The translations under genes were made by a program, and so were the position numbers. Positions 5,109 through 34,945 of a DNA stretch of 53,418 nucleotides are shown piece after piece; the stretch's first letter is position 1, and every line of letters begins with the position of its first letter. This DNA comes from Dietzia cinnamea NBRC 102147 (lineage in GTDB: Bacteria; Actinomycetota; Actinomycetes; Mycobacteriales; Mycobacteriaceae): NCBI RefSeq assembly GCF_001571065.1, contig NZ_BCSW01000022.1, positions 1 through 53,418 of the forward strand, written 5' to 3'. Under the pieces are notes generated by a model. The model saw only the letters and a program-made list of their open reading frames with translations, ran no database searches and had not been told where the DNA came from.

Positions 5109-8100
5109 TCAGCGCGCGAGCGGCCCGCCGTTCCACAGCCCCGACCGTACGGCCTCTCCGTGGTCGACGGTCGCCTCGCGCGCCTCGGGCACGAGCGGTG
5201 TGTACCGCACGAGCGATCCCCAGTCCCGGTCCCAGTCGTGCTCGAGGTAGGTGGGCACGGTCTCGCCCTCGAGCAGCAGCTCGATGAAGCCGAGCGGCCC
5301 TCCACCGTCCCACGACTGCCATGTGTTGGTGGAGCTCACCGCGAGACCGCGGTCGGGAAGGACGCGGTATTCGGGCAGCTCGTGGATGCCGGCGTACTCA
5401 TCGAACGGCCGCAGGCACGGCACGTGGAACGCCACGGCCCAGTCGGGCAGGACCGGTCGGGTGTCCCCGACCAGCTCCTGCATCGTCACGAGCTCCGGCA
5501 TGCGCGGCGGGGTGAATGCGATCCAGCGCGACGGGTCCGGGTCGAGGTCGCGCACGACCAGCCGGATCGCGGTGGTGTCGTCGGGCAGCGTATCCACGGG
5601 CACGCGCAGGTTGCGCCATGCCGGGGCCGGGCCGATGTCCAGGGGAAGGACGGAGCCGGCGATCTCGGTGCCACCGCCGGTCGCGTACTCGACGCGCAGG
5701 GCGTCCGGGGCGAAGGAGCCGGCCACGGCGATGGTGACGAGCGGGTTCTCGTCCGACCGCGCGGGCAGCGGATACCAGTCGGTGGTCGTCTCGGCGTTGA
5801 ACTGCGCACCGGTCTGGTGGCTGCCCAGGACGGGCACGCGGGCGGGGTCGAGACCGAACGGCAGGACGGCGTGGCTGCCGTTGATGCCCTCTCCGGCGCG
5901 GACACCGCCCTCGGTGCCGGCGGTGGTCGACGTGGTGTCGGAGCTCTCGCCGGTGCCCGGGGTGTCGGTGTCGACGTCCTGCGTCGCCGTGAGGTCGGTG
6001 GGGATGCCGTCGGGCTCGAACCGGATCGCCTCGGCCCCGGCCTCGAGCTGGTCACGCGGCTCGCTCATGGGCGCGAGGAGGCCCGCGTTGGCGTCCGGCT
6101 CGGCGAGGACCGCGTCGGCGATGCCGCACGGCTTCCCGGACAGTGCGCGCAGGTTCTGGAGACCCACCGAGTAGGCGGGGTACTGGTTGCGGACGGCCGC
6201 GGCCATGGAGGCGACGATGATGACGACGACGAGGGCGGCCGCGAGCCCGAGCGGGGCCCGCGAGATCTCGCGGGCGAAGCGACGGAGGGGCCCGCGGTCG
6301 CGGTCGGGCCGCTGCGGCCGGGTCCGCGTGACGAACAGCTCGCGGTAGTGCAGCACCAGCGCGGCCAGGAGAGCCAGCAGCATGAGGCCGACGAACACCG
6401 AGGACAGGGTGACCCCGGCGACGGCCGGCTGGGCGCCGCCCCACGGGATGCCGTAGATGGAGATGTACCACCAACCGTTGGTGGAGGTGAAGCTCAGCGC
6501 CAGGACGAAGAACACGGCGGCAAGGAACAGCATGCGGTTGCGTAGCGAGCGCGTCGCGGTGGGCAGGACCGCCATGGTCACGAGGGCGGCGAGCGCCGCA
6601 CCGATGGTCGCGAACGCGCCGAAGTGGTGCGTCCACTTGGTGGGGTTGAGCGCCATGAACGCGATGGAGATCGCCGCCAGGCCCACGATGCGCCGGGCCG
6701 GCCCGATCGCCACGCCGGGGACGCGTCCCTTGCGGAACAGTATCGCCGCGCAGGTGATGAGCGAGAGGAACATGGTGAGCACCGCGAACCGCCGCGCGAG
6801 CGAGCCGTCCGGGGTGGGGTTCATGAGCCACTCGTAGCGCCACACCTCCTCGAACCAGCGGCCGGTAGGCCCGACGTCGCCGAGCAGAGCCGACGACTGG
6901 AGCGTGGTGACCAGCGGCTGGTCCAGGAAGATCAGGTGCAGTACCCCGAGCCCCGCGGCCAGCAGGGGTGCCACGGTCGGGACCCACCCGTCGCGCCGCG
7001 CCCGCCGGATGATGAGCAGCAGCAGCGGGCGCGAGGCGGCGATGATGACGGCGATGCAGAACGTGCCCGTCGGCGCCGCGGACAGGGTGAGCCCGCCGAT
7101 GATGAATCCCGTCGCCGCCGGCAGCAGTCGGCCGGTCGCGAGGGCCCGTTCGAGCGAGACCCAGGTGGCCAGCACGCCGAAGGCGATGATCGGCTCGGGG
7201 CGCAGGCCGTTGTTGTAGGTGAGCCAGAACGCGAGGAAGACGGCGGCGGTGCTCCACCGGACGGCGGGCGCTCGACGAGCGGCGATGCCCAGGCGCGGGA
7301 TGACCTCCCGCGAGAGCAGGATCCACGATCCGATGCCCAGAAGTAGGGCGGGCAGACGGAGCCAGATGCTGCCCAACGACACCGCGCTCATCGCGGTGTA
7401 GAGGTAGTACGGCATCCCGAACGGGGCGTAGGGGGCACCGTAGTAGCGGAAGACCTCGGGCATGTAGCCGCTGGAGACCGCCGCGCGCGCCTCGGTGAGG
7501 ATGTAGCCGTCGTCGGCCGTGTTGGCGCCGATGACGTGCCACACGAGCAGGGTGCCCACGACGAGCACGTCCAGCGGTCGAGGCTTCCACCAGCCCGGCG
7601 GGAGGATCCGGCGGGCCAGCCGTCCGTCACGCAGGTCGAGCCGGTGTAGGGCGACCAGCGCGACGATGATGGCGAGGATGCCCACGACGATCGCGATCTG
7701 CTTGAGCGCCGTCGCCTGCGTGGTGTAGCGGGAGTCGACCGTGATGTCGACGGACATGCCCTCCGGGGCCGCGCCCTCCAGATCGGTGAAGACGCCCACC
7801 ACCTGGGGTCGCAGGTCGCGGTCGATGCGGCCACCGACGCCCTGCCCGTCGACGGAGAGTCCGGTGAACTCGGCACCGATCGAGCCGGAGTCGGCGATGA
7901 CGCGGATGCTCGAGCAGCCGCCGGGCGCGGCGACCGCCTCGGTCGGAGCGGAGGCGATGAGGACGTTGCGGCTGCGCACCTCGACGTTAGGGCCGGCCAC
8001 GGACACCATGAGGCCGCGCGCGCCGGCGTCCTCCCCCGCCTCGCGCGGCGCGGTGGAGACGAGGACCCCGTCCTCGCGGCCCTGCTCGCGCAGCTCGGTC

Positions 8101-32163: not shown

Positions 32164-33375
32164 CTAGCTGGACAGGACCTCGAACGTCAGGCCGCCGCGC
32201 TGCACCCGCTCGAGGAGCGCGTCGCCCATCGCCTGGGCGGTGGTGAGCTGACCGGAGAGCGTGGGCAGGTCGTCGAACGCCAGGCACAGCGCCGACTCGG
32301 CCAGCATCATGGACGTTTCCGTGTAACCCGGGTCCCCGCCCGAGACGCGGGTGACGACTCGCCGCCCACCGGACAGGGCGACGAAGGTGACGTCGAATGA
32401 CGAGCGGGCCCGGCGGGACTCACTCGGTCCGGCGCCGCGGTCGATCCGCTTGAGGATCTGCGATCGGATCGGGCCGACCTGCGACCCCGCCGCGAGCGCG
32501 CCCACCCCGACGATCCCGGCGACGGCGGTGACGGGCGAGCCGACCGAGGCGTAGTGCGAGTAGGTGAAGTCGGGGCCGTAACTGTCCAGCGCGGCGGCCG
32601 AGCGCAGGATGACCTGCGGGTCGATGGTCGGCAGCGGCACGAGCCAACGGCCCAGCGCGCTGTCGTGGTGCGGCTTACCCGTGACCGACTTGATCCGCCG
32701 GCCGGCAACGCGCCCCTCCTTCTGCCGCCGCCGCGCGGCCGTCTTCGCCGCCTCTCGCAGTCGGGCGAACTGGCCGATCGCCGAGTGGAACGTCCCGCCC
32801 GAGAACCGGGCGTCCGCGTGGACCGCCCCGTAGACGACCGCGGGCACGCCCTCGGGCACGTGCTTCATGGTGTAGAACACGCCCATGTCGTGGGGGACCG
32901 AGTCGAAGCCGCAGGCGTGGACGATCCGGGCCCCGGAGGCGACGGCCGCGTCGTTGTGCTCGAGGTACATGCGGTCGACGAACTCGGGCTCGCCGGTCAG
33001 GTCCACGTAGTCGGTGCCTACCTCGGCGCAGGCTGCCACGAGGGGCTCGCCGTGCTCGAGGTAGGGGCCGACGGTGGTGATGACGACGCGGGCCGACAGC
33101 GCCATCTCGACCAGCGACCGCGCATCCTCGGTGTCCGCGACCACGACGCCCGGAGCGGGGACGTCCGGCATCTCGGACGCCAGGCGGGCGACGAGGGCGT
33201 CCAGCTTGGTCCGGTTGCGCCCGGCCACGGCCCACGAGCCGCCCTCGGGCAGGTTCCGCATCAGGTACTCGGCCACCAGTCCCCCGGTGAACCCGGTCGC
33301 GCCGTAGAGGACGATGTCGAACGGGCGATCGGCCTTGTCGGACGGGGACGCGGGCTGGATGCTGGATTCGCTCAT
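32164..33375 (-). CDS. Saccharopine-dehydrogenase-family oxidoreductase (trans-acting enoyl-reductase-like)
   Basis: A 403-residue NAD(P)H-dependent protein. The Rossmann motif VLYGATGFTGGLVAEYL is at about residues 22-38, followed by VAGRNRTKL. Further segments VVADTEDARSLVEMA, VITTVGPYLEHGEPLV and ACGFDSVPHDMGV are typical of mycobacterial trans-acting enoyl reductases (Rv2953/Rv2449c), which reduce polyketide lipid chains. The partner synthase and substrate here are unknown. A possible SD (GTGGA) precedes the ATG. The 0.5-kb region upstream carries three palindromes that could control this gene. Confidence 0.88.
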   Translation of the reverse strand: MSESSIQPASPSDKADRPFDIVLYGATGFTGGLVAEYLMRNLPEGGSWAVAGRNRTKLDALVARLASEMPDVPAPGVVVADTEDARSLVEMALSARVVITTVGPYLEHGEPLVAACAEVGTDYVDLTGEPEFVDRMYLEHNDAAVASGARIVHACGFDSVPHDMGVFYTMKHVPEGVPAVVYGAVHADARFSGGTFHSAIGQFARLREAAKTAARRRQKEGRVAGRRIKSVTGKPHHDSALGRWLVPLPTIDPQVILRSAAALDSYGPDFTYSHYASVGSPVTAVAGIVGVGALAAGSQVGPIRSQILKRIDRGAGPSESRRARSSFDVTFVALSGGRRVVTRVSGGDPGYTETSMMLAESALCLAFDDLPTLSGQLTTAQAMGDALLERVQRGGLTFEVLSS

Positions 33376-33527
33376 TCCACGGTTGTACCGCAATCAGGCC
33401 CTTCGTGACCGGGCCCCGATCTCGCCCGCGTGTCTGCCGTGGCAGCCACCGAGTGCGGCGGCCGCGCACGTAGTCGGCCCCTCGCTGCGAAGATCGCGCT
33501 GTCAACCCTTCGCGGCGACACCTTCAA

Positions 33528-33774: not shown

Positions 33775-33803
33775 CAGTGATGTGCACCACTGCCTTATCT
33801 AAT
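33775..33803 (+). promoter_or_regulatory. Possible promoter for the 77-codon frame
   Basis: TCTAAT (33798-33803) matches TATAAT in five of six bases and lies in an AT-richer patch. CAGTG/CACTG arms at 33775-33792 form a palindrome around GTGCAC just upstream. No good -35 is seen. The leader would be about 100 nt; apart from these sites and the three palindromes I see nothing in 33376-33912. Confidence 0.35.
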
Positions 33804-33912
33804 CCTGAGCACAACCTCGGTCAGCTGTGCACAATCATCACGCACGCGTGACCACCCGGGTCGCCGGCACCCCGCCCCACTCCCCCCGGGGCGCCTACAT
33901 CAAGGAGTCCCC

Positions 33913-34146
33913 ACGGACCTCACCGGTTCGATCCTCAGAGAAACCCTTCCCCTCTCGGCCGAGATCACGAGCGGGTCGACGGGCACGGGCTCGTCTTTCA
34001 TCGACACCCTCGTGGGTGCGCCGTTCACGCTCCTGAACATGGTGGCGCTTTTCGTCGGCGGTCTCGGCGGAGACATCGGCAGCTCCGGTAGCGCCGATCT
34101 CGGCACCGTCATCGGCGAGATCGCCAAGGGCATGCTGCCGGCCTGA
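33913..34146 (+). CDS. 77-residue amphipathic protein, apparent ACG start
   Basis: The reading frame starts TDLTGSILRETLPLSAEI and ends LGTVIGEIAKGMLPA. AAGGAG (33902-33907) sits 5 nt before an ACG codon where ATG would be expected; no ATG, GTG or TTG occurs in frame upstream until the Shine-Dalgarno. Third codon positions are strongly GC, like real genes here. It has no signal peptide, a central hydrophobic stretch (FTLLNMVALFVGGLGG) and many Ser/Gly/Thr. Size and style recall the short mycolate-membrane channel peptides PorA/PorH of corynebacteria, but that is only a resemblance. A hairpin terminator follows. It could be a pseudogene with a lost ATG. Confidence 0.5.
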   Translation, partial: TDLTGSILRETLPLSAEITSGSTGTGSSFIDTLVGAPFTLLNMVALFVGGLGGDIGSSGSADLGTVIGEIAKGMLPA

Positions 34147-34186
34147 GCGAGCATCAGCAGCGGCCAGCCCGACTGGTCGTCAACAC

Positions 34187-34224
34187 CGAAGGGCCCGCCG
34201 GGGGAGATCCCAGCGGGCCCTTCG
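34187..34224. terminator. Bidirectional terminator between the 77-codon frame and purQ
   Basis: A 12-bp stem CGAAGGGCCCGC/GCGGGCCCTTCG with a 14-nt loop. It supports transcription from the plus strand here as well as from purQ. Confidence 0.75.
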
Positions 34225-34267: not shown

Positions 34268-34945
34268 CTAGACCTTGACGACCGCGTCGAGCGCGGACAG
34301 GAACAGGCCGAGGCCGTCGTCGGACGGGCCGGTGAGCGGGTCGATCGCGTGCTCGGGGTGCGGCATGAGCCCCACGACGCGTCCGTTCTCCGAGGTGATG
34401 CCGGCGATGTGGTTGGTGGAGCCGTTGGGGGCGTCGCTGGCGAAGCGGAACACGACGCGCCCCTCGCCCTCCAGCTCCTCGATCGTGTCGGCCGTCGCCA
34501 TGTAGCGCCCCTCGCCGGACTTGAGCGGGATGAGGATCTCCGCGCCCTTCTCGAAACGCGACGTCCAGGCGGTGTCGGTGTTCTCGACGCGCAGCCACTC
34601 GTCGCGGCAGATGAAGTGCATGTCGCGGTTGCGGCCCATGGCGCCGGGCAGGAGGCCGGCCTCGCAGAGGATCTGGAAGCCGTTGCAGATGCCCAGCACG
34701 GGCATCCCACCGCGGGCCGCGGTGATGACCTCACCCATGACGGGGGCCATGGAGGCGATGGCTCCGCAGCGCAGGTAGTCGCCGTAGGAGAAGCCGCCGG
34801 GCACGATCACCGCGTCGACGCCCTTGAGGTCGGCGTCGTCGTGCCACAGCGAGACGGCCTCGCCGCTGGCGCGGGTGACGGCGCGGGACGCGTCGATGTC
34901 GTCGAGTGTGCCGGGGAAGGTGATGACGCCGATCCGCGCGCTCAC
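34268..34945 (-). CDS. purQ: Phosphoribosylformylglycinamidine synthase, glutaminase subunit
   Basis: A class I glutamine amidotransferase supplying ammonia to PurL. The 225-residue protein has the nucleophile elbow VLGICNGFQ with Cys87. The partner His and Glu are in [13 protein letters not shown] 34945 overlaps the purS stop by 4 nt (GTGA), so the two small subunits are made together. Confidence 0.98.

What the first reader, a model, noticed from the sequence alone, without database searches (positions are those of the whole stretch)
33913..34146. Intergenic 77-codon protein with a strong Shine-Dalgarno but an ACG start
AAGGAG sits 5 nt before ACG, in a frame with high GC at third positions, no signal peptide, a hydrophobic core and a terminator behind it. 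No ordinary start is in frame. Either a real ACG-initiated gene, which is rare, or a gene whose ATG has just been lost. The protein style recalls the short mycolate-membrane pore peptides (PorA/PorH) that gene callers often miss.
Basis: partly seen in the sequence, partly recalled or inferred. Interest (0 to 1): 0.72.

Follow-up and report, generated by a model that had tools for sequence, protein, structure and literature searches.

The report
Dietzia membrane peptide with ACG start
This overlooked small gene belongs to a family that appears confined to Dietzia and probably encodes an outer-membrane peptide; relatives start it with ATG or GTG at the very codon that reads ACG here, so this copy is either weakly translated or newly silenced.

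Summary
In detail: AAGGAG, 5 nt, ACG, then 77 open codons. The frame is a real gene. In 16 of 23 genomes of the genus (Dietzia; this genome included) it has a match; all 19 distinct homologues aligned start with ATG (17) or GTG (2) at exactly this codon, between the same two neighbours. The closest (D. massiliensis, 97%) has ATG. ACG was seen in this assembly alone, in a recombinant-looking 5' patch; body and stop are intact. Weak translation or recent silencing cannot be decided from sequence. The family is one branch of a set of 51-79-residue peptides without evident signal peptide, nearly free of Lys/Arg, with invariant Gly-Ser sites and a predicted helix-loop-helix form, often in tandem; this genome has four more. 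They resemble PorA/PorH in style, but no PorA/PorH model or profile matches significantly, so they are not filed there. Most likely they are O-mycoloylated mycomembrane peptides, perhaps channel formers: no Dietzia genome listed had an MspA match. Near-absence of Lys/Arg would hide them from tryptic proteomics. Function is inferred, not shown.

The parts
33902..33907 (+). Shine-Dalgarno AAGGAG, 5 nt before the ACG
   Evidence: AAGGAG-like sites at about the same distance in most relatives
33913..33915 (+). ACG at the position of the family's start codon (ATG in 17, GTG in 2 of 19 distinct homologues)
33913..34146 (+). 77-codon gene of family A, stop codon included
33988..33996 (+). codons for G26-S27-S28 at the loop/helix junction; G26 and S27 invariant in 20 of 20 rows, S28 in at least 90%; inferred candidate O-mycoloylation site
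   Evidence: role inferred
33793..33939 (.). 5' patch (leader, start codon, first nine codons) with 19 substitutions against D. massiliensis, while the stretches on both sides match it; the part nearest the gene resembles genome G008 instead
34187..34224 (.). strong G+C-rich hairpin between the gene and convergent purQ, without a T-run; likely shared terminator
   Evidence: similar hairpins in the 3' flanks of many relatives, by eye
34268..34945 (-). purQ-like gene, right-hand syntenic neighbour (name recalled, not tested)
32164..33393 (-). dehydrogenase-like gene, left-hand syntenic neighbour (label recalled, not tested)

Best explanation
The frame is a genuine gene of a family found here only in Dietzia (shown). 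It encodes a 77-residue, acidic, Gly-Ser-rich peptide without evident signal peptide (sequence shown), helix-loop-helix by a modest-confidence prediction. By analogy with PorA/PorH the peptide most likely crosses the inner membrane without Sec, is O-mycoloylated on Ser in the flexible Gly-Ser loop(s), and sits in the mycomembrane as a channel or wall-linked protein, together with its sibling peptides (inferred). In this strain the start codon is ACG, so output is low, carried by the strong SD, or has just been lost (undecided).
For: Homologues with start at this codon in the 16 of 23 genus genomes that match, own genome included; the same two neighbours for 20 of 20 rows of A1; invariant G5 S6, G26 S27, D31, G52, D54, G56 S57; pN<pS in 159 of 190 pairs. 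Related peptide families B and C link by profile (A-B 96.7%, B-C 97.5%). No Lys/Arg in 15 of 20 A, 6 of 6 B, 7 of 10 C rows, no Cys. Predicted helices 3-20, 28-58, 60-74 with S27 ending the loop; in an AlphaFold model of MytC-PorA, PorA Ser15, the mycoloylated residue, lies in a loop joining two helices (PMC11927696, passages). O-mycoloylation favours flexible Ser/Gly-rich stretches (PMC11066868, passages). PorA/PorH/ProtX also lack signal sequences (PMC12632848, passages). 52 of 151 relatives have an MspA match, none of them Dietzia.
Against: No experimental evidence of expression, location or modification. No homology to PorA/PorH shown. A-C direct profile match is weak (31.7%). Model confidence is low (pLDDT 66.8, pTM 0.29). 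The gene is dispensable: small gap or remnant in several genomes, so an inactive copy here would not be surprising. The hydrophobic stretch would also suit an inner-membrane protein. A published statement gives Dietzia MspA-type channels (PMC9233653).
Confidence: 0.5

Rival explanations
1. The ATG was lost recently and this copy is a fresh pseudogene, not yet decayed.
For: ACG found in no homologue; remnants in G001 (C-terminal half only) and G020 (truncated, inverted), and gaps of 61-105 nt in G002, G006, G022 show absence or loss at this locus more than once; other sibling peptides remain in this genome, so loss may be tolerated.
Against: Frame, SD and stop are intact; 0 substitutions in 204 nt of body against D. 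massiliensis while outside the gene 3.5% of sites differ. This is weak, because a 248-nt stretch upstream of the gene, apparently non-coding, is also identical, which suggests patchy recombination.
Confidence: 0.45
2. The ACG is a real but weak start, giving low or IF3-sensitive expression.
For: Strong SD at good spacing; intact body; Streptomyces sigR uses a GTC start repressed by IF3 (PMC5472188, passages), so non-canonical starts exist in actinobacteria.
Against: No second genome with ACG; the eight papers listed for 'ACG start codon' with bacteria and translation initiation show, by title and abstract start, no such bacterial gene (listing only).
Confidence: 0.35
3. Sequencing or assembly error, or a polymorphism of this one isolate, at 33914.
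For: One assembly only; draft of 159 contigs.
Against: Neighbouring differences in the same patch match another genome (G008), so the region is not simply noisy.
Confidence: 0.17
4. The frame is not coding; a chance open frame in G+C-rich DNA.
For: No Pfam or NCBIfam match for the window protein; an 84-codon ATG frame runs antisense.
Against: Synteny, conserved start and motifs, conservation pattern.
Confidence: 0.01
5. A small inner-membrane, holin-like or secreted antimicrobial peptide rather than a mycomembrane one.
For: Hydrophobic 19-residue stretch, mean hydropathy 1.9; two family members have sub-threshold holin matches (E 0.12 and 0.27).
Against: Net charge -5, almost no Lys/Arg, unlike typical antimicrobial peptides (recalled); conserved neighbours look like housekeeping genes; invariant Gly-Ser sites unexplained.
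Confidence: 0.25

Closest known systems
PorH/PorA two-component porins of Corynebacterium (NCBIfam NF033938, NF033925)
   Same: Short, acidic, no evident signal peptide, described as helical, behind a strong SD, genes in tandem; PorH also begins MDL
   Different: No model or significant profile match; richer in Gly-Ser and poorer in Lys/Arg; different locus (purQ/dehydrogenase, not groEL2-ppk2)
ProtX of C. glutamicum (signal-less mycomembrane protein)
   Same: Class description: signal-less mycomembrane protein (PMC12632848, passages)
   Different: Sequence not compared here
MspA family (PF09203)
   Same: Found in 52 of 151 relatives, all of the same family; stated in PMC9233653 (passages) for Dietzia too
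   Different: Longer, another model altogether; no match in the Dietzia genomes listed
Streptomyces sigR, GTC start repressed by IF3
   Same: Non-canonical actinobacterial start behind a strong SD (PMC5472188, passages)
   Different: There present in 32 of 34 Streptomyces genomes, by the paper; ACG here was seen in one assembly

Membership tests
PorH/PorA | match to NCBIfam porH_2 / pora_1 | tested here: not met
   Window protein none at E<=1; seven other Dietzia peptides matched neither porin model (two had unrelated sub-threshold matches); controls from L122 matched porH_2 at 2.1e-8 (over cut-off) and pora_1 at 8e-13 (48.1 bits, cut-off 50). porH_2 passed its cut-off in 2 of 151 relatives, both g3, no Dietzia; it missed a third g3 genome (G090), and G006 (Dietzia) has two matches at E 0.25-0.37 in other frames
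PorH/PorA | profile homology to PorH or PorA | tested here: not met
   A1 vs PorH 2.0%, vs PorA 0.1%; family C vs PorH 20% (E 0.0011), vs PorA 1.1%; the PorH and PorA profiles hold five rows each
PorH/PorA | about 45-65 residues, no signal peptide | tested here: inconclusive
   51-79 residues; 0-1 Lys/Arg in the first 10 residues, no Cys; no signal-peptide predictor was run
PorH/PorA | alpha-helical | tested here: inconclusive
   All-helical model, pLDDT 66.8, pTM 0.29
PorH/PorA | tandem gene pair between groEL2 and ppk2 | tested here: not met
   purQ/dehydrogenase slot, single copy of family A in this genome; tandem copies of family A in G012, G013, G014, G017, G018; locus rule from PMC5944148 (passages)
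PorH/PorA | Ser O-mycoloylation | not testable with these tools
   Invariant Gly-Ser sites fit, nothing more
PorH/PorA | channel activity | not testable with these tools
   needs lipid bilayer experiments
MspA | match to PF09203 | tested here: not met
   Window protein has no Pfam match at E<=1; no match in own genome (its controls were silent, but the same model matched 52 of 151 relatives)
ACG-initiated gene | translation starts at the ACG | not testable with these tools
   position conserved as start codon, initiation not shown

The most novel reading that the evidence does not exclude
Dietzia has replaced MspA porins by a genus-specific set of tiny signal-less, nearly Lys/Arg-free, Gly-Ser-repeat peptides (families A, B, C, D) that are mycoloylated and assemble as the mycomembrane channels, evolved independently of PorA/PorH and hidden from both gene callers and trypsin; in this strain one of them is initiated from ACG.
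Probability: 0.2. Interest if true: 0.8.

Novelty: new variant of a known kind. Interest (0 to 1): 0.52.

Why it matters
How signal-less mycomembrane peptides leave the cell is an open question (PMC12632848, passages). A second set, not shown to be related by sequence and with invariant Gly-Ser sites, gives natural comparisons for export and mycoloylation signals, and candidates for the Dietzia cell-wall channel. The near-absence of Lys/Arg would explain how they could be missed in tryptic proteomes. The ACG allele offers one clean natural test of a non-canonical start.

Tried and rejected
Rejected: non-coding frame (homologues); start at GTG 34012 (inside the conserved region, no SD by eye); membership in PorA/PorH; wider spread: the family A profile matched 17 genus genomes and one other (G182, E 0.0031) among 201; the family C profile gave 3 weak hits outside the genus among 251 (E 0.001-0.04; under the filters their loci L106 and L108 showed no such small frame and L107 only an unrelated one).

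Led nowhere: Pfam (no match for the window protein; sub-threshold only for relatives); PDB profile search, one unrelated match at E 0.69; promoter/terminator consensus scan, nothing. Identity of the body with D. massiliensis does not decide between function and fresh loss. A fold search was not made because the model is of low confidence. Carel 2017 and Hecht 2017 are not held; Mafakheri 2014 (D. maris porin) was not looked up and was seen only as cited.

Rows dropped or mishandled: G013 copies L009 and L019 were left out of A1 as identical in protein to G014 copies L010 and L020; L043 (second copy in G017, ATG) and a partial G013 copy were not put into A1; the divergent L023-L025 went to family B (L025, same protein as L023, left out of A2; so was L046, same as L045). 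In A3 the first copies of L064 and L066 were left out as near-identical to the G000 copy. In A1 the row L002 lacks its last codon by a slip of mine; one search used it whole. One search failed on a file name and read minus-strand loci in the wrong direction; one search replaces both. An earlier count gave the G001 gap as 340 nt; one search printed 475 nt.

Full report
WHAT IS THERE. At 33902-33907 lies AAGGAG, then five bases, then ACG (33913) and 77 open codons to TGA (34144-34146); no ATG, GTG or TTG lies upstream in frame before a stop. The third-position G+C is 0.86 against 0.58 and 0.55. A strong hairpin at 34187-34224 (fold z -3.9) lies between this gene and the convergent purQ-like gene; it lacks a T-run, and the consensus scan lists no terminator or promoter.

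IT IS A REAL GENE. The window lies in G000, a draft genome of 3.6 Mb. Of 23 genomes of its genus, 16, G000 included, hold a match at E<=0.01. The genus is Dietzia: the matched contigs of seven handles have the same length as named records found by the pattern scan, among them D. maris IMV 195T (G007), D. massiliensis Marseille-Q0999 (G009), D. natronolimnaea S-XJ-1 (G011) and D. cercidiphylli YIM 65002T (G010). One search read each homologue in its proper orientation. Of 19 distinct homologues put into alignment A1, 17 start with ATG and 2 with GTG, all at the codon that is ACG here; the two G013 copies left out as duplicates are also ATG, and so is L043. In one search all 20 rows of A1 show the purQ-like gene on one side and the same dehydrogenase-like gene on the other; four loci of G013, on a short contig, show only the purQ-like gene. 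Substitutions keep the protein more than the silent sites in 159 of 190 pairs, although the family evolves fast (median pN 0.39, pS 0.47).

THE START CODON. The nearest relative, D. massiliensis, is 97% identical in protein and has ATG. Against it, the body 33943-34146 has 0 substitutions while the first 30 nt have 5, and 33793-33939 as a whole is a divergent patch with 19; outside the gene 3.5% of 2991 aligned sites differ. The leader nearest the gene is instead almost the leader of G008, which has ATG. So homologous recombination probably swapped in the 5' patch, and the change to ACG came with it or later (inference). A pattern scan of the species-genome collection that admits both ATG and ACG found 68 matches in 67 stretches. 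One search printed only frames under 130 codons: eight of them, in seven Dietzia records, encode this family and all read ATG; the other printed ones encode other things (many look like EF-Tu, recalled); longer frames were not inspected. The tool warns that the window's own genome may be left out there. Thus ACG was seen in this assembly alone. Absence is common at the locus: of the seven genus genomes without a match, G002, G006 and G022 have only 61-105 nt between the two neighbours, G003 has 296 nt without a recognisable frame, G001 keeps a C-terminal remnant, G020 a truncated inverted copy, and in G004 the contig ends (remnants judged by eye).

A LARGER SET OF PEPTIDES. Family B (M(W)GSL..., 9 of 23 genus genomes at E<1e-30, not G000) and family C (MGSL..GS.EFALDSGST..., often tandem) are related to it: hhalign probability A-B 96.7%, B-C 97.5%, A-C only 31.7%. 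G000 holds a C pair at C1:127885-128046 and 128197-128355, and a more divergent pair D at C33 (L126:5581-5739 and 6097-6249). The second D peptide (D2) matches in 14 of 23 genus genomes at E<1e-9. D is linked to C only weakly (C profile to D2 of G000, E 0.065; D2 profile to a family C copy of G001, E 3.8e-4) and was not compared with A. With the window gene G000 thus has five such genes. Lys/Arg are absent from 15 of 20 A (the window protein has two), 6 of 6 B, 7 of 10 C, 2 of 2 D2 and 1 of 2 D1 rows; there is no Cys; GS occurs 2-5 times. AlphaFold2 on A1 gives helices 3-20, 28-58 and 60-74 with the invariant G26-S27 at the end of the loop, at modest confidence (pLDDT 66.8, pTM 0.29).

FUNCTION. 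Inferred: a mycomembrane peptide of the PorA/PorH manner. PorA, PorH and ProtX lack signal sequences and their route out is unknown (PMC12632848, preprint; passages and section 5). PorA is mycoloylated on Ser15, which lies in a loop between two helices in an AlphaFold model (PMC11927696, passages). O-mycoloylation sites are flexible and rich in Ser and Gly, without a strict motif (PMC11066868, passages). In one search, 52 of 151 relatives have an MspA match; all 52 are listed and none is of this genus (20 Dietzia rows are shown without match; G010, G013 and G014 are not shown). None of the three g3 genomes named (g3 taken as Corynebacterium because it holds PorH) is among the 52 either. PMC9233653 says that Dietzia channels belong to the MspA superfamily, citing Mafakheri 2014 (passage; the 2014 paper was not read). 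This conflict is open.

MEMBERSHIP. PorH/PorA-like pairs were found in g3 genomes (L122-L125) and served as controls. The L122 pair matches NCBIfam porH_2 (2.1e-8) and pora_1 (8e-13, just under its cut-off), while the window protein and seven other Dietzia peptides match neither; porH_2 reaches its cut-off in no Dietzia genome, though it also misses one of three g3 genomes, and one of 14 control genomes is over the cut-off (C. glutamicum is among the six that ring; which one passes is not stated). Profile comparisons are not significant for A and suggestive at most for C against PorH (20%, E 0.0011). The locus differs too. I therefore do not file it as PorA/PorH; 'works like' remains open.

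NOT IN PRINT? Searches for Dietzia with porin (32 papers, 15 listed), with mycoloylation (2), and for two of Dietzia, small proteins, mycomembrane (27, ten listed) showed no description of these peptides in the listings and passages seen (passages). Subscription papers are largely outside that library. The Dietzia vesicle proteome (PMC8027190, passages) used trypsin and recorded proteins with more than three peptide counts, which would miss proteins without Lys/Arg.

VERDICT. The start-codon question is unresolved: recent loss is slightly favoured over a weak ACG start (0.45 against 0.35), with error or polymorphism as the remainder. The wider interest is the Dietzia peptide set.

Noticed in passing
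L065:1501-1662 and 1813-1971 (G000:C1): Tandem pair of 54- and 53-residue Gly-Ser peptides (family C) with SD and ATG, beside a gene that looks like an ECF sigma factor (label recalled, not tested).
   Followed up: partly
L126:5581-5739 and 6097-6249 (G000:C33): Second tandem pair (family D), the first with TGSTAAEG repeats; similar pair in G003 (L071), 51% and 71% identical.
   Followed up: partly
L117:1507-1692:- (G013): Another signal-less Gly-Ser peptide, MGSITDIALGS..., of a further type.
   Followed up: no
Dietzia genomes: No MspA (PF09203) match in the Dietzia genomes listed, against a published statement that Dietzia channels are of that superfamily.
   Followed up: partly
33793-33939: Divergent 5' patch between stretches identical to D. 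massiliensis: mosaic locus, probably recombination.
   Followed up: partly
L084 (G001) and L037 (G020): Remnants of the family A gene: C-terminal half only, and a truncated copy in inverted orientation.
   Followed up: partly
33900-34154, - strand: 84-codon ATG frame antisense to the gene, which a gene caller might choose instead; no Pfam or NCBIfam match, conservation not tested.
   Followed up: partly
L124 (G074): Two PorH/PorA-like pairs in tandem in one Corynebacterium-like genome.
   Followed up: no
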